Shown here in pieces: positions 4,071-62,704 of a DNA stretch of 64,000 nt. Position 1 is the stretch's first letter, and the number at the start of each line of letters is the position of its first letter. Origin of the DNA: a virus; the IMG/VR virus record IMGVR_UViG_3300046004_000591, positions 62,001 to 126,000 of that record; one strand, 5' to 3'. The position numbers and the translations under genes are program-made. The notes under the pieces were generated by a model, which ran no database searches, had not been told where the DNA came from, and was given only the letters and a program-made list of their open reading frames with translations.

Positions 4071-4711
4071 ATGTTACTTACCTTTAAAGAATTTCAAGAA
4101 ACGCTTGATGATTATAAAAAATTGAATGAAATGGCAATTGCTGGAGAAGGCGATTGGGTTGATAATAAAGCATTTGGATTTATTACATCAAAAGTGTTAT
4201 CTCTAAAATATAAATTTGTAGATAATCTTGAAATTAAAAACGAATCATTTGAAATGTTTGTAATGGGGGATAACAATAAGAAAGTTATTTCAATTGGTAA
4301 ATTAAGAAAAGATGATGGCGATACAAAATTGGCTGTTATTGGGTCAATTGAATTAAGAAAAATCCCAGATATAATGGATTTACATAATGTTTGGAACGTA
4401 GATGACGTTAGAGTTGAAGAAAAATTCCAAGGTCAAGGTATTGCCAAATCGTTATATTTGTATCTTGTTAAAACTCTTAAAATGACTATTCTAGGTGATG
4501 AAGTTCAATATTTTGGAGCTAGGCTTTGTGGAGTAAATTGAGTAAATCTAATGACATAATAGTTGATATTATTGACATAATTGATAAAACTTATATTAGT
4601 AAAAATGTTGAAATTCATCAAGGTATTGAAGAAGCAGATTTTGATAAACAAGTTTGGTCTAGAGATGAAGAATTAGCACATGTTCGATTAATTTTAAAAG
4701 ATATAAAATAA
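4071..4711 (+). pseudogene. GNAT-like acetyltransferase with a frameshift
   Basis: The first part (ATG 4071, AGGAGA upstream) has the GNAT acetyl-CoA loop region (VDDVRVEEKFQGQGIAKSL) and ends at a TGA at 4539 just after FGARLCGVN. The next frame continues with LWSKLSKSNDI and stops at 4709-4711. GAR-x-LW is what an intact protein should read, so a 1-nt deletion near 4520 splits the gene. The N-terminus (MLLTFKEFQETL) carries the capsid-targeting-like motif shared with several other proteins here. Alternatives are a sequencing error or two separate polypeptides. Confidence 0.65.
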
Positions 4712-15814: not shown

Positions 15815-16669
15815 ATGAGTATCGTAAGTTTAAATTTTCTAACAGATGATTCATCTAATGCAGTATTGAAAGATGTTAATTTCTTCAAATTCTCTGGTGG
15901 AGAAGTTCATGTACAATTGAAGAATACTCCAAAAAATGTATATGAAGTTGAAATTCAGACCAGACTTAAATCATCTGATGACATCATGGAATTGTTGATG
16001 GTAACAAACGCATTAAGATTACATTATGGTTCTAAGATACCATTAACATTGGTCACTCCTTATTTACCGTATGCTAGACAAGATAAAGTGTCTGACGACG
16101 GCGAATCATTATCATTGAAAGTGTTTGCTGATTTAATCAACAATCAAAATTACAATCGAATTGTTACATTTGATGTACATTCAGATACATCTCTGGCTTT
16201 ATTTGATAACATTATCAACATTGAACAATACCAAATTGCTTCTGAATGTATTGATGAATTGGATGATAAAATCAATTTAGATAATCTAGTGTTATTATCG
16301 CCAGATTTTGGTGCATCTAAAAAGATTTACAAATTGGCATCTAAACTTTCATTGGATGTTGTCCAAGCAAATAAAGAAAGGGATTCGTCCGGTCATATCA
16401 TCAGAACAGAAGTGTATAGAGATGATTTCAATGGTAAAGACGTATTGATTGTAGACGACATCTGTTCAGGTGGTAGAACTTTTATCGAAATATCTAAAAT
16501 TCTATCACAAAGAAATGTTGGTAAAATATATCTTTACGTAACTCATGGAATTTTTGATATTGGAATCATTCCAATTTTAGATTCAGGTATATGTAAAATC
16601 ATTACGACAAATTCTTTTATAGAAAATTCAAACCATGAAAGATTGCATATTATTGAAATTTTTAATTAG
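15815..16669 (+). CDS. prs: PRPP-synthetase-like enzyme, candidate ADP-ribose pyrophosphokinase (Adps, NARP1)
   Basis: A 284-aa protein with TPYLPYARQD (81-90, the ATP/ribose-5-P loop), VTFDVHSD (117-124) and the PRPP loop VDDICSGGRTF (213-223). These are ribose-phosphate pyrophosphokinase landmarks. Phage genes annotated as Prs next to a NAMPT-like gene include Adps, which pyrophosphorylates ADP-ribose in the NARP1 NAD+-rebuilding pathway; the NAMPT-like gene at 18701 makes this likely here. Everything downstream of the GG in the PRPP loop appears replaced by the cassette that brought the 16670 endonuclease; the old end survives at 17655. Specificity for ribose-5-P versus ADP-ribose cannot be read from sequence. 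Confidence 0.8.
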   Translation: MSIVSLNFLTDDSSNAVLKDVNFFKFSGGEVHVQLKNTPKNVYEVEIQTRLKSSDDIMELLMVTNALRLHYGSKIPLTLVTPYLPYARQDKVSDDGESLSLKVFADLINNQNYNRIVTFDVHSDTSLALFDNIINIEQYQIASECIDELDDKINLDNLVLLSPDFGASKKIYKLASKLSLDVVQANKERDSSGHIIRTEVYRDDFNGKDVLIVDDICSGGRTFIEISKILSQRNVGKIYLYVTHGIFDIGIIPILDSGICKIITTNSFIENSNHERLHIIEIFN

Positions 16670-18700: not shown

Positions 18701-20179
18701 ATGAACAACGCATTATTACAAACAGATGCTTATAAATTAGGACACATCAAACAATACATCCAAGGTACGGAAGTCGTTTATTCAAACTTCACCGCTCGTT
18801 CTGGTAAACATTCAGGAATCAAAGATTGTAAAGGTGTTTATTTTGTTGGATTACAACATTTTGTAAAGGAATATCTAATTGATGAATGGAATACATCATT
18901 CTTTTCTAAACCAAGAGACCAAGTCGTAAAACGATACAAACGATTTGTTGATAAAATGTTGAATTCTGATGTTGATGTATCGCATATCGGAGTATTACAT
19001 GATTTGGGATATTTGCCAATCACAATCAAAGCATTACCAGAGGGTTCGTTTGTTCCTTTTAAAGTTCCTTTGTTGACTGTAATCAATAATATCCCAGAGT
19101 TCTTCTGGTTGACTAATTACATTGAAACTGTATTGAGTTGTGAAATGTGGCTTGGAATCGCTTCGGCAACACGTTACATGGAATTCAAGAAAACCAGTTT
19201 GAAGTATTCAGAATTAACATGTAATGATAATTCGTTTGTTCCATTTCAGAATCATGATTTTAGTATGAGAGGTATGCAGAATAGACAATCTGCTGCTGTA
19301 TCTGGGTTTGCTGTATTGGCAATGGGTTCTGTTGGTACTGATACATTACCAGCTATTGAATTGGCTGAAGATTATTATGGAGCAAACATCGATGAAGAAT
19401 TGGTTGGTTGCTCGGTTCCCGCCTCGGAACATAGTACCCAGACTTCTTACGGAGTTGAAAATGAATTGGAATCAATCCGTCATTTAATTGAAGATGTTTA
19501 TCCAGATGGAATCTTCTCAATGGTTTCCGATTCGTGGGACTTCTGGCAATTAGTTACGGAGTATCTACCCGCATTAAAAGATACAATCATGAATCGTAAC
19601 GGGAAACTTACAATCCGCCCAGATTCGGGGGATCCTGTTGATATTATCTGCGGAACATATTCTGTATTGAATGGTAGATCTCCAGAACAAAAAGGATTGA
19701 TTGAATGTTTATGGGAAACATTCGGTGGTACAATTAATTCAAAAGGATATAAAGAATTAGACCCACATATCGGAGCAATCTATGGTGATTCAATTACATT
19801 AGAACGTCAGGACACTATCCTACGAAAATTGATGGAAAAAGGATTTGCGTCCAACAATATTGTATTTGGAGTAGGATCGTACACTTACGGAATGGTCTCA
19901 AGAGATAGTTTCGGAATTGCGTTTAAGTCCACATACGTCAAGGTTAATGGAGTTGGTAAACCAATTTTCAAAGACCCAAAAACGGATTCTGATGGAACCA
20001 AAAAATCTGCCAAAGGATTGTTGATGGTATCTCATGAAAATGGACAATATACATTGAATGACGACGTTGATGCAAAACAAGAAAAACATGGATGTTTAGA
20101 AGTTGTATTCAAAGATGGAAAATTGGTCAAGGAAACAACGTTGGCTGAAATTAGACAACTCGTCAACAAATCATTATAA
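18701..20179 (+). CDS. nadV: Nicotinamide phosphoribosyltransferase-like enzyme, candidate Namat (NARP1)
   Basis: A 492-aa full-length NAMPT-family protein. HDFSMRG, GTDT (Asp214), SVPASEHST with the catalytic His244, IRPDSGDP and the final VFKDGKLVKE line up with human NAMPT. The family joins nicotinamide to PRPP to give NMN; the phage NARP1 member instead joins nicotinamide to ADP-ribose pyrophosphate and yields NAD+ directly. With a Prs/Adps-like gene just upstream this is a good NARP1 candidate, which would undo NAD+ depletion by defences such as Thoeris, DSR or SIR2-type systems. No NMN adenylyltransferase is seen in the window, which argues against NARP2. Confidence 0.9.
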   Translation: MNNALLQTDAYKLGHIKQYIQGTEVVYSNFTARSGKHSGIKDCKGVYFVGLQHFVKEYLIDEWNTSFFSKPRDQVVKRYKRFVDKMLNSDVDVSHIGVLHDLGYLPITIKALPEGSFVPFKVPLLTVINNIPEFFWLTNYIETVLSCEMWLGIASATRYMEFKKTSLKYSELTCNDNSFVPFQNHDFSMRGMQNRQSAAVSGFAVLAMGSVGTDTLPAIELAEDYYGANIDEELVGCSVPASEHSTQTSYGVENELESIRHLIEDVYPDGIFSMVSDSWDFWQLVTEYLPALKDTIMNRNGKLTIRPDSGDPVDIICGTYSVLNGRSPEQKGLIECLWETFGGTINSKGYKELDPHIGAIYGDSITLERQDTILRKLMEKGFASNNIVFGVGSYTYGMVSRDSFGIAFKSTYVKVNGVGKPIFKDPKTDSDGTKKSAKGLLMVSHENGQYTLNDDVDAKQEKHGCLEVVFKDGKLVKETTLAEIRQLVNKSL

Positions 20180-20926: not shown

Positions 20927-21151
20927 ATGAAAACCATGCCAAATTATAAATTGTCATTAGAAGAAATACAAAATAGCAAAAGATGTGGATGTTATTATTG
21001 TTGTTCTATATTCTCATCAAATGATGTTGAAATTGATGATGATTATTACAGTTGTCCTAATTGCGGAATTGATTCTATTATAGTAGAATCAAAGGATTAC
21101 AAATTAACTAAAATCAAATTGAAGGAAATTAAAAAACGTGAATTCTATTAA
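20927..21151 (+). CDS. Zinc-ribbon-like small protein
   Basis: A 74-aa protein with two metal pairs, CGCYYC (near 20-25) and CPNCG (near 43-47) followed by IDSII, a common zinc-ribbon arrangement. The start could be ATG 20927 or the in-frame ATG 20936; neither has a strong ribosome site. It overlaps the next gene by 14 nt. Confidence 0.6.
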   Translation: MKTMPNYKLSLEEIQNSKRCGCYYCCSIFSSNDVEIDDDYYSCPNCGIDSIIVESKDYKLTKIKLKEIKKREFY

Positions 21152-21560
21152 AACATTTAAAGAATTTCTTGCAGAAAGAAATGCATTTTTGACATCAACA
21201 ATGAATAGACGAACAATTTTTGTTTATAATACATCACATTCTAACGAACGAAAAATTGAAAGAGATATTTCAGACGATGAAATAAAAGAAACATTGAATC
21301 AAGGTATAGAATGGTTGTCTTTACATGAAAATGAATTTAAAGATAAAAAAACGGCGGCATTTTTATTCTATTCAAATAGCAAACAAGTCGGGATTGTTTG
21401 TGATTTTAAAGTGGATAAGAAAATATCAAATTCATTGAACAAACATCTATTCATTATAACAATTTTACCAAAAGGTAAACATATAGCAAAATTAGGAACC
21501 CAGAAGATTATAGTTGAATCTGCTGAATATACATTCGATATTTTTGTAAGTTTACCATAA
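21138..21560 (+). CDS. RelE/BrnT-superfamily-like protein with capsid-targeting-like N-terminus
   Basis: A 140-aa protein from GTG 21138 (AAGGAA at 21122-21127). The N-terminus KTFKEFLAE-RN closely resembles the T4 internal-protein capsid-targeting signal, with an L-x-E protease site. The rest has SHSNERKIERDISDDEIKE, which recalls the DUF4258/BrnT type of RelE-like folds, then beta strands. If both readings hold, this would be a small toxin-like nuclease packaged in the head. The toxin similarity is weak; the N-terminal motif is clear. Confidence 0.55.
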   Translation: MNSIKTFKEFLAERNAFLTSTMNRRTIFVYNTSHSNERKIERDISDDEIKETLNQGIEWLSLHENEFKDKKTAAFLFYSNSKQVGIVCDFKVDKKISNSLNKHLFIITILPKGKHIAKLGTQKIIVESAEYTFDIFVSLP

Positions 21561-22964: not shown

Positions 22965-23012
22965 ATGAATAGAGAAGGATGGGGTGATATTGATTCCACA
23001 GAGGTTATCTAA
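22965..23012 (+). CDS. Possible 15-residue leader peptide before acb1-like gene
   Basis: ATG 22965 has the strongest ribosome site in the area (AGAGGAGAA) but opens a frame of only 15 codons (MNREGWGDIDSTEVI) ending TAA, 1 nt before the ATG of the 2H phosphoesterase. It may be a translational coupler or a decayed gene start. Confidence 0.35.
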   Translation: MNREGWGDIDSTEVI

Positions 23013-23013
23013 T

Positions 23014-23481
23014 ATGTTAACATTTGAACAATGGAAACAATATAAAGGTGGATACGTATCTGTTAAATTATCGGAAGAGGATTCCAAACGTATCAGAAGA
23101 TTCTTTAATGATAATGGAGTTGAAGACATCATCGAGGATTTACATGTAACATTAATGTATGATGTATCTAATCCAGCATACAAAGTTGAATCATTACATG
23201 ATAAATTTGTTGGTATTATCACTGGATGTAAATTACTTGGCGAGAAAGGTTCTAAATGGGGTGCAGTTACGTTGACATTAGAATCTCCTGATTTGATTGC
23301 TCAACATAATGTATTGAGCAATCTAGGATACAAACATTCTTATCCTGAATACATCCCACATTTATCGATTAAGTATAAACCAAGTGATGAAGATATTCAG
23401 AAGATCGAAGAATTGACTAAACAATTACAAGGAAATAAATTGACATTCGATTCATTCAGTATTGATCCAATTAAAGAGTAA
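23014..23481 (+). CDS. 2H phosphoesterase, Acb1-like (anti-CBASS candidate)
   Basis: A 155-aa protein with two H-x-T/S motifs, HVTLMYD (His44, Thr46) and PHLSIKY (His116, Ser118), in the positions and total length of the phage T4 57B/Acb1 enzyme (152 aa, H44/H113). Acb1 hydrolyses the cyclic oligonucleotides that CBASS defence uses as alarm signals. SKWGAVTLTLESPDL between the motifs matches the expected strand and loop. The second site has Ser instead of Thr. The N-terminus MLTFEQWKQY also follows the F-K/E motif. A cyclic phosphodiesterase of RNA repair is the alternative. Confidence 0.8.
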   Translation: MLTFEQWKQYKGGYVSVKLSEEDSKRIRRFFNDNGVEDIIEDLHVTLMYDVSNPAYKVESLHDKFVGIITGCKLLGEKGSKWGAVTLTLESPDLIAQHNVLSNLGYKHSYPEYIPHLSIKYKPSDEDIQKIEELTKQLQGNKLTFDSFSIDPIKE

Positions 23482-23704: not shown

Positions 23705-26530
23705 TTATTTATTCAATAGACGAAGATACTTGTCTAATTGTTTATCCTGTAAATCATAACAACTCAATACGTCATTGAATTCTAATTGTTTCGTTGGAAT
23801 AATCACTGATGTAATTCTTCCTCTGATTTCAACTCTAATACCTTTCTTAAATGTAGTGTCTGTTACATCAGTGGATTTGATTACTTTACCATCTGGTGTA
23901 ATTACATTTCTGTCATAGAAATTGTATGATGTATAATTGTTCTTCTTAATATCAACATATTCTTTGAATGACATCATTCTTGGTTTGACTGCTTCATTTA
24001 ATGATTTATCTAATTCTGATTTATCTACCAATTTCACTTCATACGCCTTAATAATTTTTAATTGTCTGTTGGCATCAAATACAACCCATTCTGGCGAAGC
24101 AATTCTATCATTACCTAATCCAGCTTCTTTGTAATCATTACCTTTTACCCCAAGTTCGTTTTCCATTTCAAAAACGTAACCAGTTGTACCAAGTCTTCTG
24201 GTCATCCCTTTATTACCAACATATTGTAATACTTTGTCGATATTGGTACCAAAGTAAATACCATCACCTAACATTCTACCTTGTATACCAATAGCAGAAT
24301 TACTTTGTTCTGGTAACACTTTAAATCCATATCTAAGAATCATATTAGCGGCAATAGAACCAGTACCATGGAATGCAGGAACAATCTCTTTATGTGTATT
24401 ATTTTGAATCATCAATTCCTTGAACTCTTGGAATTTATCATCTGGTAGATGAACTTCAAATTGACGTAAGACTAATGGATAGATGTCACCATGTTTACCA
24501 CCAGAATGCGTCTCATCAACAATCTTCTGAGATAACTTCTTGTTTTCGGAATCCGTTGTTTTCAAATCAACAATTTTCAATGGTTCAATAGTTGCAACAG
24601 ATTCATCTTTAACAAAATCATTGATGGTCTGCGATAAAGTCTTATTCTTAGAGAATTTCATTTTGGTGCCAGAAATTACACTAAGGTCGATGTCATTGAA
24701 TTCCAATATTGCTTGAATAGATTTGGCATCTAGTTCTTCTTTGATTGGTAATGCGCTATCTTTTAAATCATGCATCACTCTGAATGTCGAGTTGAAATTC
24801 TTTTTGACTCTTGTTTTAATCTTATCACCAAAATCATTGAAGATAGAATCAACAAGTTCCGGTTTGGTTTTATAATTGGATACCAACAAATCAAACAATG
24901 ATGATGAAATACCATCTAATCGTTCTTTGTCGTCGAAGTATTCAAATACACCATCATCCGTAAATGCTCTTTTAAATTTATCATTGAAATAATCAATTAC
25001 ATTTGGTTTGGTGAATAATTGTTTCATGTAACCATATTTTCGTTCCCATGGATACCATTTATCCATATCTTCCATGAACAATTTATTCATTGAATTTAGA
25101 TACGGTGTGAAATGAGGTATACTTGAATTTTCTAAACCAGCTTTGATTAAAATTTCATTGTAATTGAATTTCTTCAATAAATCATCAGGTTCCTTTATCA
25201 ATCTACCAGTTAATACAACATTTCGTAATGCAAGTAATCTATCATTAACGTCATAAATTTCATCAATTTGTTGTTGATTTAAATGAACAGCCATCGAGCT
25301 ACCATAATCGATACCCATGTCTTTGATTGTCAATTTAACAGCATCCACTAAGATTTCTGGAAAATCTTTTACAATACGTTTACCATTATCAGTTGAAATT
25401 AAGATCTTATGTTCAGTGTAAAAATCAATGATTTCTTTACCCGTGGAAATATCTTTGTTACACATATATTGAACAACTCGTAAAGGTCCGAAAATCTTAA
25501 CGAAATCCATATTTCTATCTTTCAGAATCATGATTGAATCTTTAATATCAAATTGCATCCAATCCATATTTCCATATTTTCCCAATTCAAGAATTTGTTC
25601 TTCCGAATAATTTAAGAAAACATATTTTCCCATTGTTTCTAAATGTTTGGATTTAAAACGATTGTTTATAAATCCTGGATATTTTTTTGATAATTTAATA
25701 ACAACATCTATATCTTTTATTAATTCGTCTGCGTCTTCTTCATTCATGTTGAATCCATTTTTGTTCAAAATTCTATCATATAATTCTTGATTGAATTGTT
25801 TAACTTCTGGTTCTTTCTCAACAATTTGAATTGGTTCATCTATAACATCCGGTGGAGTTGTTACAACAGCAGTCGACGTATTAACGGTAGGAACAAATAT
25901 CTGAGGATTTGCTAATGTAGGCGGAACAGCAGACGCAGTTGGCGTTGTCGCTACGCCAGTTGTCTTAGGTTTATGTGTATGTCTTTCAATTCGACCAACT
26001 TTCTTTGCCAAATCAAGATACTCTCCGTCACCATATGCAGTCTTATGTTTATACAATTTGTAACTCAATCTATCGAAACTGGTGACACTATTCATGTAAT
26101 CATCAACAGTCTTTTTCAAATCCGTTGGGATAGCGGAATGAAACGCAGGAGATAAATCGGACAACCATGCTCTGATAATTGCATCATCGAATGAAGGTAC
26201 ATCCGAGACTTTCAATTTCGCCAATAATTTGGTCATCTCATTGGCAGTGTTTGTATTCTTGAAACCATGTCCATCATGCATGATTTTCAGAATTAAAGAC
26301 GCATCATTGTTATCATCAGTGATGTTGACAATCTGTAATTTCTTATCACCGACAAAATAATGTTTGGCTTTGGTAGAATCTTTATTGTATAGAGATAGAT
26401 TACCGATGAATGAATATAAGAATGCAGTTACAATGGTCTTCTTATCTTTCAGGAAGTCGTCTTTCTCCTGTTGAGAAGTATAAAGACTGTTCTCGTTGAT
26501 TTGTTTGCGTATGTCGTTGAATGATTTCAT
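23705..26530 (-). CDS. Large protein with C-terminal PARP-type ADP-ribosyltransferase domain
   Basis: A 941-aa protein starting at 26530 (AAGGATACTCC before ATG). Residues 1-200 are unknown, about 205-260 are a Pro/Thr/Val linker, then a long helical region. A PARP-like domain lies at about 700-840: FHGTG (His721), GDGIYFGTN (Tyr759) and SPEWVVFD (Glu814) give the full H-Y-E triad, so it should be active on NAD+. The N-terminus MKSFNDIRKQINE resembles a capsid-targeting signal, and a second one, MMSFKEY, begins at residue 852 after LNEA. It could be a head-packaged enzyme like T4 Alt, which modifies host RNA polymerase; targets are unknown. Confidence 0.8.
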   Translation of the reverse strand: MKSFNDIRKQINENSLYTSQQEKDDFLKDKKTIVTAFLYSFIGNLSLYNKDSTKAKHYFVGDKKLQIVNITDDNNDASLILKIMHDGHGFKNTNTANEMTKLLAKLKVSDVPSFDDAIIRAWLSDLSPAFHSAIPTDLKKTVDDYMNSVTSFDRLSYKLYKHKTAYGDGEYLDLAKKVGRIERHTHKPKTTGVATTPTASAVPPTLANPQIFVPTVNTSTAVVTTPPDVIDEPIQIVEKEPEVKQFNQELYDRILNKNGFNMNEEDADELIKDIDVVIKLSKKYPGFINNRFKSKHLETMGKYVFLNYSEEQILELGKYGNMDWMQFDIKDSIMILKDRNMDFVKIFGPLRVVQYMCNKDISTGKEIIDFYTEHKILISTDNGKRIVKDFPEILVDAVKLTIKDMGIDYGSSMAVHLNQQQIDEIYDVNDRLLALRNVVLTGRLIKEPDDLLKKFNYNEILIKAGLENSSIPHFTPYLNSMNKLFMEDMDKWYPWERKYGYMKQLFTKPNVIDYFNDKFKRAFTDDGVFEYFDDKERLDGISSSLFDLLVSNYKTKPELVDSIFNDFGDKIKTRVKKNFNSTFRVMHDLKDSALPIKEELDAKSIQAILEFNDIDLSVISGTKMKFSKNKTLSQTINDFVKDESVATIEPLKIVDLKTTDSENKKLSQKIVDETHSGGKHGDIYPLVLRQFEVHLPDDKFQEFKELMIQNNTHKEIVPAFHGTGSIAANMILRYGFKVLPEQSNSAIGIQGRMLGDGIYFGTNIDKVLQYVGNKGMTRRLGTTGYVFEMENELGVKGNDYKEAGLGNDRIASPEWVVFDANRQLKIIKAYEVKLVDKSELDKSLNEAVKPRMMSFKEYVDIKKNNYTSYNFYDRNVITPDGKVIKSTDVTDTTFKKGIRVEIRGRITSVIIPTKQLEFNDVLSCYDLQDKQLDKYLRLLNK

Positions 26531-26755
26531 GGAGTATCCTTTTGTTATTATATTATTTATTTGTTTAATAATACAATTTATCATTATTTTATTATGTATG
26601 ACAGGAAACTCTACAGGATATAATGAATCGTCCTTAAATCAGCAAATTTCCATGTAGGATTAAATGTTAACATCGAAGATGTAAATTCAATGTATCGAAA
26701 GAGTCTTAAGAATACACGAAACGTCGAGCTTGATATAATCAACGTCTTAAACTCC

Positions 26756-26787
26756 TTTCGAAATGTCAGAAACTCGGGTATAGTAGA
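26756..26787 (+). promoter_or_regulatory. Repeat-unit promoter, 17-nt spaced
   Basis: TTTCGA 26756-26761, 17 nt, TATAGT 26779-26784, AGAC. ATCGAA boxes precede it. Transcription would start in ACTATGTCGACG. Confidence 0.6.
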
Positions 26788-26883
26788 CTATGTCGACGTT
26801 TCAGTTATTACCTTTAATAACATTTCTATATTCTTTTATTGTTTTCTATATTACTTCAAGATTCTTTATCGACTTTATAATTC

Positions 26884-26920
26884 ATCCCAACGTGAACTAA
26901 TCATTCTGTTGGGATTTTTA
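26884..26920 (+). terminator. Terminator of repeat unit 1
   Basis: ATCCCAAC (26884-26891) pairs with GTTGGGAT (26908-26915), then TTTTATTG. It would end a transcript of about 130 nt begun at the unit's promoter. Confidence 0.7.
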
Positions 26921-26935
26921 TTGTTTAAAATTTAC

Positions 26936-27404
26936 ATAATATGATTTCAATCCAATCATATAACATCCATTATTTGTCCAATATTCCATCTTAATGGAAT
27001 CTTTGTATATTATGTCAATCAACTCTATGTCATAAAATCTCTCCATCTTAAATCAGCAAATAACTGGACAGGATTTTATGTTAACATCGAAACAATAGAT
27101 ACCATGTATCGAAAGAGCATTAAAGGTATTGTTCGATAATCTAAGGCATCGAATATGATTATTACAAGCTAAAGATTTCTCTTGACTTTTCGACGAAATT
27201 CAATTATAGTAGACTATGTCGACGTTTCAGTTATTGCCTTTACTTTCATTAAGTGTTCTTCTATATCACTATTAGATTCTTTATAGACATTATTATATTA
27301 CTACAACGACATAATATAATCATCTATATTCAACATAAAATCTCCGTCATTCAGATCCCGCCAGATTTATTCTGAGTGGGATTTTTATTGTTTGAAATTT
27401 ACAA
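26936..27404 (+). repeat. Repeat unit 2
   Basis: Same order of parts: CCATTATTTGTCCAAT head, the microframe MLTSKQ at 27078-27098, ATCGAA at 27086, 27108 and 27148, and the GTCGAC leader. Its promoter is damaged: TTTCGA 27188 and TATAGT 27205 are only 11 nt apart, as if 6 nt were lost. Confidence 0.75.
27355..27395 (+). terminator. Terminator of repeat unit 2
   Basis: ATCCC near 27355 pairs with GGGAT at about 27388-27392, with weak inner pairing, then TTTTATTG. The stem is weaker than those of the other units. Confidence 0.55.
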
Positions 27405-27659
27405 TATGTTTGTTCCGAATCATTCTTAATATATCCATTATTTGCTCGTTAATGGGCTCTAATGGATCGTTTCCATTATATGTCAATCAACTCTACAGGA
27501 TATATTGAATCCATCATAAAACAACAATATGGATGTCTATAATAAACAAGAACATCGAAGTTGTAAATTCAACATATCGAAAGAACATATTAAACATCGA
27601 AACGGAATCTTAAGATGAAATAATGTATCGAATGTGTAATAATCATCGTCTTATACTCC

Positions 27660-27691
27660 TTTCGAAATAATAAAAAACCCAGTATACTAGA
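27660..27691 (+). promoter_or_regulatory. Repeat-unit promoter, 17-nt spaced
   Basis: TTTCGA 27660-27665, 17 nt, TATACT 27683-27688, AGAC. It is preceded by boxes at 20-31 nt intervals. Confidence 0.6.
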
Positions 27692-27851
27692 CTATGTCGA
27701 CGGTTTGAGTTAGTTCTATTAATGTTCTTTACTCGTTTTAGTATTCTTTTATATTACTTCAAGACTCTTTATAGACTTTATTATATCATCACAAGACATT
27801 TTATAGACTTTATTATATCAATTATTCAACATAAAATCTCTGTCATCCAGA

Positions 27852-27890
27852 ATCCCAATATGAACTAAACATTCTGTTGGGATTTTTATT
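27852..27890 (+). terminator. Terminator of repeat unit 3
   Basis: ATCCCAA (27852-27858) pairs with TTGGGAT (27877-27883), then TTTTATTGG. A transcript from 27690 would be about 200 nt. Confidence 0.7.
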
Positions 27891-27905
27891 GGATTCAATA
27901 TACAG

Positions 27906-28262
27906 AATTGTCATTCCAAAACAACCCTAATGTATCTATTGTTTGTCCAATAATCCACTCTAATGGAATCTTTATGTTAAATGTCAATCAACTCTACAGG
28001 ATATAATGAATCCATCTTAAACAACAAATAATTGGAAAGGATTTAATGATTACATCGAAACTGTAAATTCAACATATCGAAAGAGCATTAAGGACATCGA
28101 AGGATAACCGTAAGCATCGAATATGATTATTACATGATAAGAATACTCCTTTCGAAATCGATAAAACTCGGATATACTAGACTATGTCGACGGTTTGAGT
28201 TAGTGTATCTATTGTTTTTAGGTTTTCTTTTAGTGTCTTCCTCGACTTTATTTTATATACAT
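27906..28262 (+). repeat. Repeat unit 4, no terminator
   Basis: Head (TTGTCCAATAATCCACTC), microframe MITSKL at 28046-28066, and ATCGAA at 28054, 28076, 28096 and 28116 (spacing 22, 20, 20). It then has the promoter and the GTCGAC leader, but no terminator, so it reads toward the 28364 gene. Confidence 0.75.
28150..28181 (+). promoter_or_regulatory. Repeat-unit promoter, 17-nt spaced
   Basis: TTTCGA 28150-28155, 17 nt, TATACT 28173-28178, AGAC. It can add to the 16-nt class promoter at 28280. Confidence 0.6.
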
Positions 28263-28279
28263 TTCAACTGGAAAATTCC

Positions 28280-28310
28280 TTTCGATGTATATTAAAATCA
28301 TTATAATAGA
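28280..28310 (+). promoter_or_regulatory. Phage promoter, TTTCGA-N16-TATAATAGA class
   Basis: TTTCGA 28280-28285, 16 nt, TATAAT 28302-28307, AGA. The leader starts CAAGTTGG, then diverges from the shared 25-nt leader. It drives the 28364-30716 run. Confidence 0.75.
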
Positions 28311-38601: not shown

Positions 38602-38949
38602 ATGAAATTCGCAGTTGTTGGTTCAAGAAACATCACAGATTATGAATATGTTGTAAATATATTAAAACAATATGAAATATCTCATATTGTTTCTGGTGGG
38701 GCAAATGGTATTGATTCCATGGCAGAACAATATGCCAATGAACATAACATTCCCACCACAATCTATAAACCAGATTGGAAGAAATATGGCAGAGGTGCTG
38801 GATTTGTCAGAAATAAACAAATCATTGATGATTCAGATTGCGTCATTGCCATCTGGGACGGCGTATCTAAAGGTACAAAGAATTCAATAGACCATGCTAA
38901 AAAACAAAACAAACAACTATTCATATGGAATGAGAATGCTATCTTTTAA
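38602..38949 (+). CDS. SLOG-family (YspA/cpYpsA-like) nucleotide-binding protein
   Basis: A 115-aa single-domain Rossmann-like protein. VVGSRNITD (5-13), SGGANGIDSMAEQYA and KNQIIDDSDCVIAIWDG-x-SKGT are hallmarks of the SLOG superfamily, whose members bind nucleotides, ADP-ribose derivatives or NAD-type signals (ThsA carries such a domain). A phage copy could sequester a defence signal, as sponge proteins do, or act on nucleotides. TTGGAGGTGAC precedes the ATG. The end overlaps the next, tagged gene. Confidence 0.85.
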   Translation: MKFAVVGSRNITDYEYVVNILKQYEISHIVSGGANGIDSMAEQYANEHNIPTTIYKPDWKKYGRGAGFVRNKQIIDDSDCVIAIWDGVSKGTKNSIDHAKKQNKQLFIWNENAIF

Positions 38950-39724
38950 AGAATACAATGAATTGCTAGAAGCAATCAAACAAACTGACTCTGGTCTACA
39001 ATTCAACTACTCCGACAAACAAGGCATATCCACTAAATTTGGTAAGACTAAATCGTTCGACCCGTATGTATCAAAAGGTTCCAATGTAAATGGCGTTCCA
39101 ATTTATTCTATCTACAAGACCACAAAAGATGAATATGTGGATGTCACTTCTGTAATCAAACAATTAAAGAAACAACAAAATCTATCTCCTGATGATTATA
39201 CAAATTTCATCAGGAGAACCGCAATCTATATCTCGTACAAAATCTTAACCAAATCTAATGACCATCAGCTGGTAGATGTAATCATCACTCCTGATTCAAC
39301 ATCCTCCATCCTAGATGACCTAATTGTTGAATTGAAATCAAGGAATCCGCATATCTCGTTTGTCCCAAAATTATATGTCAAAAATGAAATCTCTAAAATT
39401 GAAATAGACAAAAATCATCCTAAGATTTCTCCCAGCATCATCAGGTCGCTAGAATATGGTCTAAAACGAGCAAATGATAAAGACTCTTTCCAAATGAAAG
39501 ACTTCAATAAACGCGACACCAAATTCCTCCAAAACTTCTACAAATTAAAAGACGATCCCAAAATTGGCAAACTAAGGAACTCCACTGTATTAGTCCTAGA
39601 TGACCTTATCGCTTCTGGTACCACCCTGAATTCCTTAATCAAAGATGTTGTTGACCTAAAATCCATATTAGACGATGAAGATTCAACTTCCACAATCTTT
39701 GGATTAACCATCTTTAAAACCTAA
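38936..39724 (+). CDS. Phosphoribosyltransferase-like protein with capsid-targeting-like N-terminus
   Basis: A 262-aa protein. The start MLSFKEYNELLEA matches the shared tag and the L-x-E pattern of head proteases; ATG 38936 is preferred to 38930 for ribosome-site spacing. Near the C-terminus STVLVLDDLIASGTTLNS is a type-I phosphoribosyltransferase PRPP loop. The middle is not recognised. Codon and base use differ from the surroundings (more C in third positions), which suggests recent arrival. It follows the SLOG gene and may share its substrate class. Confidence 0.7.
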   Translation: MLSFKEYNELLEAIKQTDSGLQFNYSDKQGISTKFGKTKSFDPYVSKGSNVNGVPIYSIYKTTKDEYVDVTSVIKQLKKQQNLSPDDYTNFIRRTAIYISYKILTKSNDHQLVDVIITPDSTSSILDDLIVELKSRNPHISFVPKLYVKNEISKIEIDKNHPKISPSIIRSLEYGLKRANDKDSFQMKDFNKRDTKFLQNFYKLKDDPKIGKLRNSTVLVLDDLIASGTTLNSLIKDVVDLKSILDDEDSTSTIFGLTIFKT

Positions 39725-43342: not shown

Positions 43343-43948
43343 ATGTTGAGATTTGGAGAATACAATAAAATGTTGATGGAAATGCCAAAGATTATGAAAA
43401 GTTGGGATCCAGAAGAATTAATAGATGCAGATAAAAATAGAGAAAATTATCTGGAATTGTATAAAGAACAAAGAAAGAAATTGGCGTTTAATTTATCGGC
43501 AAATTCAAATATGTACGAATGGAGAGATAATTTCTTTGTATTAGATATTGAAGAAGAATTGATTACATACGATATGACATATAAATTGGGTAGTTGTATA
43601 GAACTTGGAGATTTCGTTTGGCAATCTGGAGTTTGGATAAATCCAGTTTACAATTATATCGAAGGTGTTGCGGCTAAAATGTTTTTTGAAATTTTATTGA
43701 AACGACACCATACAATTTTAACGGATTCTATTCAAACATTTGATGGTAAACGATTTTGGGAACGTTGTATCGGTAAGGCGTTTAATAAAGGATTGAACGT
43801 ATATTATTTTGATTTTTTAACCAAAGAATTGGAGAAGATTGATAATTTACACGAATGGGAAATGTTCAAAAAGAAAAATAAAGATATTTGGGGTAAAACT
43901 GATAGACATAAGATGAAACGTATGTTGATTACAGATAAATTGTTGTAA
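43343..43948 (+). CDS. Unknown protein with capsid-targeting-like N-terminus
   Basis: A 201-aa protein. ATG 43343 is preferred over 43337 for spacing from CGGGA and because it gives MLRFGEYNKMLME, the shared tag (F-x-E-Y...L-M-E). The remainder has KLAFNLSANSNMYEWRDNFF and a C-terminal basic part; no family is recognised. It is flanked by two copies of the same terminator, so it looks like a cassette. Confidence 0.6.
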   Translation: MLRFGEYNKMLMEMPKIMKSWDPEELIDADKNRENYLELYKEQRKKLAFNLSANSNMYEWRDNFFVLDIEEELITYDMTYKLGSCIELGDFVWQSGVWINPVYNYIEGVAAKMFFEILLKRHHTILTDSIQTFDGKRFWERCIGKAFNKGLNVYYFDFLTKELEKIDNLHEWEMFKKKNKDIWGKTDRHKMKRMLITDKLL

Positions 43949-61945: not shown

Positions 61946-61979
61946 ATGGGATAGAACTTTACATTCTATCCCATTTCTT
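61946..61979. terminator. Bidirectional terminator between convergent genes
   Basis: ATGGGATAGAA (61946-61956) pairs with TTCTATCCCAT (61964-61974), an A-run on the left and TTCTTT on the right. It serves the + strand run and the minus-strand caspase-like gene. Confidence 0.85.
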
Positions 61980-62704
61980 TAGAACATTGATTCTGTCCTT
62001 TGTTTATCTGTACAAGTTAAGACTGGTCGTTGTTCATATCCATTCTTAATCATGTAATCCGTAATATTCTTAAACATTATTTCTCTGTTACCAGAAGCAG
62101 TCAAAAATGCTGTGGTAAATGCTCCCCTGTATTTCCCGTCGATGAACGAGTCAGCTGCCGTCTGATTATCGGTGCATCCGCTCCAACAGATTACATTATC
62201 ATTAGATACTCCGAATGGAATATTCTTAGATGAATTTATAACAGGAGATTGTATGAATCTAGGAGTAATGGATGTTGGTTTAATATCTCTAGTTGCGGTT
62301 CCTGAATGGCAACAATCAAGAATAACTTCTATATGAATATCAGGAAACTCTGAGAACAATTGTTGTATTTCATCATCTGTGATATAATTGGATGTCCATG
62401 AACCGTCTGAATTGATTAAATCGAATGGACATAGGATTTCAGTCAATCCATCTTCTTCCGAACCATTTGAACATGGGATCTGTGAACCGTGTCCAGAATA
62501 ATGTAAAATGAATTTTGTTTTGGATTCAGACAATAATTGATGCATCTTTTCAATAATGTTTGATTTGGTTGCTTGTTCGTCTAACAACCTCGATACATCA
62601 AATCCCCTTTCAATCAATTCTGTTGTTAAATCATTAGAATCTGTTATACAACCTCTCAGAGGTGCTACGTTGTATTTGTTGATACCAATAGATAATGCTT
62701 TCAT
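61979..62704 (-). CDS. Caspase-like (metacaspase, C14) protease
   Basis: A 241-aa protein with a complete p20-like core: ALSIGINKYNVAPLRGC at the start, LHYSGHGSQ with His72, and ILDCCHSG with the catalytic Cys132, as in metacaspases. WSGCTDNQTAADS and GAFTTAFL follow, also typical. AGGAGAGAAACA precedes the ATG. No effector or adaptor domain is attached. Caspase-like proteases serve bacterial abortive-infection systems, so a phage copy could be a decoy, a host-killing agent or a maturation protease. It is convergent to its neighbours. Confidence 0.88.
   Translation of the reverse strand: MKALSIGINKYNVAPLRGCITDSNDLTTELIERGFDVSRLLDEQATKSNIIEKMHQLLSESKTKFILHYSGHGSQIPCSNGSEEDGLTEILCPFDLINSDGSWTSNYITDDEIQQLFSEFPDIHIEVILDCCHSGTATRDIKPTSITPRFIQSPVINSSKNIPFGVSNDNVICWSGCTDNQTAADSFIDGKYRGAFTTAFLTASGNREIMFKNITDYMIKNGYEQRPVLTCTDKQRTESMF

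What the first reader, a model, noticed from the sequence alone, without database searches (positions are those of the whole stretch)
23705..26530. 941-aa PARP-like ADP-ribosyltransferase with an internal second targeting motif
The H-Y-E triad (His721, Tyr759, Glu814) is intact near the C-terminus of a very large protein whose first 700 residues match nothing I know. After the catalytic domain, KSLNEAVKPRMMSFKEYVD places an L-N-E-like protease site before a second F-K-E-Y motif at residue 852, as if two tagged proteins were fused or the polyprotein is cut in the head. T4 Alt is a packaged ART, but of a different subfamily.
Basis: partly seen in the sequence, partly recalled or inferred. Interest (0 to 1): 0.75.

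Follow-up and report, generated by a model that had tools for sequence, protein, structure and literature searches.

The report
Head-packaged PARP-like enzyme with cleavable tail
A large T4-like phage encodes a PARP-type enzyme that appears built to ride inside the virus head and be trimmed at both ends by the phage's own head protease, releasing a small second protein that in one relative looks like a gene of its own.

Summary
Window 23705-26530 (-) encodes 941 aa with an intact H721-Y759-E814 triad. The catalytic domain is a genuine PARP fold: Foldseek finds PARP1-3 (E 8e-7), and a family profile finds PARP1/tankyrase chains (E 1.7e-8), with H and Y aligned. It is not unique: about 40 related loci in T4-like phages (~30% identity, phrog_18612) share the architecture. 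Two features conserved across that family support the idea of a tagged, cut protein. (1) The N-terminus ends in a T4 prohead-protease motif, [L/I]-x-E|N-S-L-Y, in many members behind a capsid-targeting-like leader (MKFKEFLELQE|NSLY). (2) After the catalytic domain, all 22 relatives that keep the tail domain carry at least one [L/I]-x-E site, usually flanking an F-K-x-F targeting-like peptide; the two without a fused tail have none. AlphaFold puts this linker in disorder, before a confidently folded, unnamed ~75-aa domain. In one relative that domain is a separate ORF (ATGA overlap) with its own leader. All 14 genomes tested carry the T4-type prohead protease. Packaging, cleavage and NAD+ chemistry are inferred, not shown. 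T4 Alt is the functional parallel, but belongs to a different ART family.

The parts
23705..26530 (-). ART gene, 941 aa, ~108 kDa
   Evidence: translation; phrog_18612 E 1e-122; 90% and 71% identical full-length relatives
26553..26560 (-). late-type motif ATAAATAA, 30 nt before the start codon
   Evidence: same motif upstream of three further minus-strand genes in the structural block, taken from position and size as tail sheath, tail tube and gp22 scaffold; 11 copies on that strand. Modest evidence
26492..26530 (-). N-terminal leader MKSFNDIRKQINE, residues 1-13, predicted removed after E13 (INE|N)
   Evidence: [LI]xE|N/T-[ST]-[LFI]-Y in 20 of 21 relatives with this N-terminal domain; residues 1-11 disordered in the model
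25991..26491 (-). conserved N-terminal helical domain, residues 14-180, function unknown
   Evidence: pLDDT about 70-93; phrog_18612
25802..25981 (-). disordered P/T-rich linker, residues 184-243
   Evidence: pLDDT < 50
24584..25801 (-). variable helical middle, residues 244-649
   Evidence: low to moderate pLDDT
24023..24583 (-). PARP catalytic domain, residues 650-836; H721, Y759, E814
   Evidence: PF00644; PARP1/TNKS profile match; PDB fold match
23993..24001 (-). LNE, residues 844-846, predicted prohead-protease site (LNE|A)
   Evidence: conserved site class in 22/22 tailed relatives; disorder at 848-863 follows it
23957..23977 (-). internal targeting-like peptide MMSFKEY, residues 852-858
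   Evidence: F855 nearly invariant; F-K-x-F with [LI]xE before and usually after it in relatives
23708..23941 (-). C-terminal domain, residues 864-941
   Evidence: pLDDT about 91-96, no significant PDB match; separate ORF in L038/L064
23669..23698 (-). terminator hairpin after the gene
   Evidence: 11-bp stem; on the minus strand followed by a T-rich stretch

Best explanation
This is a late-made, head-packaged PARP-family ADP-ribosyltransferase. An N-terminal capsid-targeting leader, and probably the internal F-K-E-Y peptide, bind it to the scaffold core. The T4-type prohead protease then cuts after E13 and after E846, leaving a ~95-kDa mature ART (14-846) and an ~11-kDa tail protein (847-941) in the head. 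At infection the ART enters the host with the DNA and transfers ADP-ribose from NAD+ to host macromolecules, as Alt does in T4. The tail is a second small internal protein carried in the same chain. Shown by sequence and model: PARP fold, triad, conserved cut motifs at both ends, disordered linker, folded tail, protease gene in the same phage. Inferred: late expression, packaging, cutting, injection, substrate.
For: PARP fold and triad. N-terminal [LI]xE| at an aligned position in 20 of 21, with leaders such as MRFKEFIQLQE|N and MKFKEFLELQE|N. Linker sites 22/22 and sharply enriched. L/I-x-E is the published gp21 consensus; T4 IPIII needs only a 10-residue CTS, with residues 4 and 7 mattering most for targeting; T4 Alt is itself cut at both ends (PMC9026906). 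T4 Alt read here begins MELITE|L and holds EELTE|S about 60 residues before its end. Prohead protease PF03420 in 14/14 ART-bearing genomes tested, 0/14 control genomes; that of this phage starts MKLITE|L. The ART lies on the strand of the structural genes, among plus-strand genes, with a late-type motif. Split relative L038: the ART stop overlaps the ATG of MNPLIIKPFGQYLKEE|T.
Against: No virion proteomics for any member was found. [LI]xE is a short motif. The generic CTS-like N-terminal pattern is only weakly enriched at gene starts in this phage (7 of 263 starts against 10 of 736 internal Mets, p 0.13; positional test p 0.026). In this phage the second cut of the internal peptide is lost. 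Some relatives (Moby, X1, OC) have almost no leader before the cut (MLLLE|N). OC lacks the tail altogether, so the tail is dispensable. The split relative is one metagenomic contig.
Confidence: 0.6

Rival explanations
1. Alt-like proenzyme: the tail is a C-terminal propeptide (targeting aid, or a lid that keeps the ART inactive until it is cut off), not a cargo with its own job. Packaging and both cuts are as in the best explanation.
For: T4 Alt has a C-terminal propeptide removed by gp21 (PMC9026906), and the SPN3US prohead protease carries a cleavable C-terminal propeptide proposed to target it (PMC7411985). The tail follows the ART directly in nearly all relatives.
Against: The tail is a compact, confidently predicted domain conserved over the family, unlike a disposable peptide, and it is a separate ORF with its own leader in L038. 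OC keeps an intact-looking ART with no tail nearby.
Confidence: 0.35
2. Ordinary intracellular phage PARP made during infection; the [LI]xE and F-K-E-F segments are just a conserved amphipathic linker helix, never cut.
For: In the Stenotrophomonas and Xanthomonas relatives the gene lies among replication genes (gp32, dexA, helicase loader). No proteomics. Short motifs.
Against: The conserved positions are P3 and P1 of the protease consensus at two places, with P2 free; the linker is disordered in the model, and members without a fused tail lack the sites. T4 alt also lies outside the head cluster, beside DNA ligase.
Confidence: 0.2
3. The internal peptide is a relic: only the N-terminal leader works and the linker is no longer cut in this phage.
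For: Second cut site lost in the window protein and L002/L003 (FKEYVDIKK, FKEFNNAKK) while most relatives keep LxEA.
Against: The first site LNE|[AS] is kept in all three, and it alone suffices to separate the tail.
Confidence: 0.15

Closest known systems
T4 Alt (NP_049811.1)
   Same: Phage ART; short leader ending in [LI]xE; cut at both ends by gp21 (literature); gene on the opposite strand to the neighbouring tail genes
   Different: Different ART family (PF03496), no significant sequence similarity, no PARP domain, no internal F-K-E-F peptide, no comparable tail domain
PARP1/2/3 and tankyrase catalytic domains
   Same: Fold, H-Y-E triad, order of motifs
   Different: No other PARP-associated domain recognised by Pfam; HGTG in place of the HGS motif; virus-specific N-terminal domains and a cleavable-looking tail
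phrog_18612 and phage PARTs (PMC9503650, PMC7824862)
   Same: Same protein family (phrog_18612) and same ART class; head packaging of phage ARTs in general was already proposed there
   Different: No cleavage sites, targeting peptides or tail domain were found described for this family in the passages searched
T4 internal proteins IPI-IPIII
   Same: Short N-terminal targeting leader cut by gp21
   Different: Small proteins with no enzyme attached

Membership tests
PARP/PART (PF00644) | Sequence match to the catalytic domain model | tested here: met
   Isolated domain 27.8 bits, above the 26.7 cut-off; 14/14 relatives match. The full-length protein is just below cut-off
PARP/PART (PF00644) | H-Y-E catalytic triad | tested here: met
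   H and Y align with PARP1 residues; E814 in the conserved SPEW motif near the end of the fold; its match to the PARP1 glutamate was not checked by superposition
PARP/PART (PF00644) | ART fold of PARP type | tested here: met
   all 50 listed PDB matches are PARP1-3, best E 8e-7; 166 matches at E <= 0.001
PARP/PART (PF00644) | NAD+-dependent mono- or poly-ADP-ribosylation | not testable with these tools
   needs an enzyme assay
T4 Alt family (PF03496) | ADPrib_exo_Tox domain | tested here: not met
   T4 Alt matches PF03496; this protein does not
T4-type processed head protein | [LI]-x-E site behind a short N-terminal leader | tested here: met
   INE at 11-13
T4-type processed head protein | gp21-type protease in the same phage | tested here: met
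   G000:34535-34972 (-), E 3.5e-34
T4-type processed head protein | Late expression | tested here: inconclusive
   strand of structural genes and ATAAATAA motif only
T4-type processed head protein | Presence and cleavage in the virion | not testable with these tools
   no proteomics found
phrog_18612 | profile match over N-terminal domain, ART and tail | tested here: met
   E 1.3e-122; both ends match separately

The most novel reading that the evidence does not exclude
A packaged polyprotein: one chain carries two virion cargoes, an ART and a small internal protein with no solved relative, each with its own capsid-targeting peptide, separated inside the head by the prohead protease, with both fused and split forms of the pair among relatives.
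Probability: 0.4. Interest if true: 0.72.

Novelty: new variant of a known kind. Interest (0 to 1): 0.58.

Why it matters
It would show that two unrelated ART families were independently fitted with the same two-ended delivery system, make 'targeting tag plus protease site' a way to read from sequence which phage proteins are injected, and give a PARP relative that acts in the first minutes of infection. It is directly testable in cultured phages (Aeh1, pf16, Moby). In Aeh1 and PX29 an ADP-ribosylglycohydrolase-like gene sits directly upstream, which suggests a writer and eraser pair.

Tried and rejected
Full-length profile against PDB sequences: nothing; the catalytic-domain profile worked. 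Tail domain as a standalone family: PHROGs and tblastn found it only inside ARTs; a pattern scan found one separate ORF. Tail fold in PDB: no significant match, best E 0.2. A basic tail like T4 internal proteins: pI ranges 4.1-9.9 over relatives, so dropped. A loose CTS pattern at gene starts: not enriched. Exact TATAAATA as late promoter: rare in this genome. Macro domains: none in this phage, only weak or borderline hits in two relatives. Split as the ancestral state: L038 falls inside the fused group, though that group is poorly resolved, so fission is likelier. Published virion proteomics for pf16, Aeh1 and Menderavirus: none found.

Full report
WHAT IS THERE. The window is bases 62001-126000 of a 149,447-base viral record. 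Its major capsid protein is ~61% identical to those of T4-like cyanophages, and it encodes a T4-type prohead protease. The ART gene is a minus-strand island among plus-strand genes; the structural genes from about 12 to 48 kb of the record are also on the minus strand. The gene has its own late-type motif and a terminator hairpin.

CATALYTIC DOMAIN. Residues 650-836 fold as a PARP catalytic domain in the AlphaFold model. A profile of 14 relatives matches PARP1 and tankyrases, with the catalytic His and Tyr aligned. E814 lies in SPEW, which is nearly invariant. Enzyme activity is inferred.

FAMILY. tblastn finds 36 phage records and profile-guided scans 32 IMG/VR loci, some of them the same phages. 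They include Aeromonas phages Aeh1, PX29 and phiAS5, Pseudomonas pf16, Xanthomonas X1, Ochrobactrum OC and Stenotrophomonas Moby. Most are annotated 'hypothetical protein', a few 'ADP-ribosyltransferase'. One scan of bacterial genomes found only one locus, apparently a T4-like phage in a metagenome bin, next to DNA polymerase and clamp-loader genes. In Aeh1 and PX29 the gene directly upstream is annotated as ADP-ribosylglycohydrolase-like; PF03747 is found in 6 of 14 ART genomes, including the two nearest relatives of this phage. The record of this phage is incomplete, so its absence there says nothing. In Moby the gene is near NMN adenylyltransferase and nicotinamide phosphoribosyltransferase genes; the window has a gene of the latter kind too.

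BOTH ENDS CARRY PROTEASE SITES. At the N-terminus, 20 of 21 relatives with the ENSLY domain have L or I at P3 and E at P1, the other V; P2 is free. The three relatives with a different N-terminal domain have LTE|L, LTE|I or LNE|V in their first 26 residues. Behind the catalytic domain, every relative with the tail (22 of 22) has at least one [LI]xE in the linker, often two, bracketing F-K-x-F: for example pf16 INE|STSIVGIKHFTNFINE|AG and L019 INE|ETAVKMLSFKEFLRE|AR. This is the gp21 consensus (PMC9026906). The window has LNE|AVKPRMMSFKEYVDIKK: first site kept, second lost.

THE TAIL. Folded alone, the last ~75 residues reach pLDDT of about 91-96, with low confidence over the linker. No solved structure matches. 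In L038 the ART ends ..DDDTDNT and its TGA overlaps the ATG of MNPLIIKPFGQYLKEETGQ.., the tail domain with its own leader; this ART has no [LI]xE in its end. A frameshift error cannot be excluded for one contig, but the ATGA overlap and a GGA a few bases before the ATG look like a coupled gene pair. On the tree L038 falls inside the fused group.

HOW SURE. PARP fold: about 0.97. Head packaging: about 0.75. Cut after E13: about 0.72. Cut after E846: about 0.65. Tail as a cargo in its own right: about 0.45. These are judgements, not computed values. The enrichment tests treat related sequences as independent, so their p values overstate the case; the aligned positions and the two untailed controls are the stronger argument.

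PRIOR ART. Phage PARPs and head packaging of phage ARTs were proposed before (PMC9503650, PMC7824862). T4 Alt is cut at both ends (PMC9026906). What I did not find described is the two-ended cleavage motif, internal targeting-like peptide and separable tail domain in a PARP-family phage protein. The library searched is open-access only.

Noticed in passing
window 26600-28300, and 60086, 60535: Non-coding array of imperfect ~470-500-base direct repeats; the exact 15-mer TAGACTATGTCGACG occurs 4 times here and twice near 60 kb (0 expected), and one copy sits at TTGACT-17-TATAGT. No Rfam match. Possibly repeated small transcripts or promoters.
   Followed up: partly
window 61979-62704 (-): Caspase-domain protein (Peptidase_C14, E 1e-26), another minus-strand island; unexpected in a phage.
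   Followed up: no
window 4071-4541 (+); record position 24366 (-): Two GNAT acetyltransferases with targeting-like leaders (MLLTFKEFQETLDDYKKLNE|M; MLSFLEYWKLIE|G), candidates for packaged modifiers.
   Followed up: partly
record positions 20108 and 17885 (-): Two small proteins of 120 and 93 aa on the strand of the structural genes with nearly the same leader, MxxFEQFKQTVMEEFAGR[LI]xE, and different bodies.
   Followed up: no
window 38936-39724, 43343-43945, 21138-21560 (+); record position 129611 (+): Further proteins with leaders like MLSFKEYNELLE|A, MLRFGEYNKMLME|M, TFKEFLAE|R, MLSFKQYNNTIQE|A; one phosphoribosyltransferase-like, one DUF4258-like.
   Followed up: no
window 22984-23481 (+): Acb1-like anti-CBASS protein (PF23474, E 3e-16) next to the ART; an internal Met gives the start MLTFEQWKQYKGG.
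   Followed up: no
window 15815-16669 and 18701-20179 (+): PRPP-synthetase-like and nicotinamide/nicotinate phosphoribosyltransferase-like genes: NAD+ salvage or, from memory, a NARP1-type NAD+ rebuilding pair.
   Followed up: no
L054 with L019 (contig 3300035183_000720): Two ART copies with tails in tandem about 3.8 kb apart in one phage contig.
   Followed up: no
L071:6457-8118: A relative with the catalytic His replaced by Tyr (FYGTG) and a reading frame split in two.
   Followed up: no
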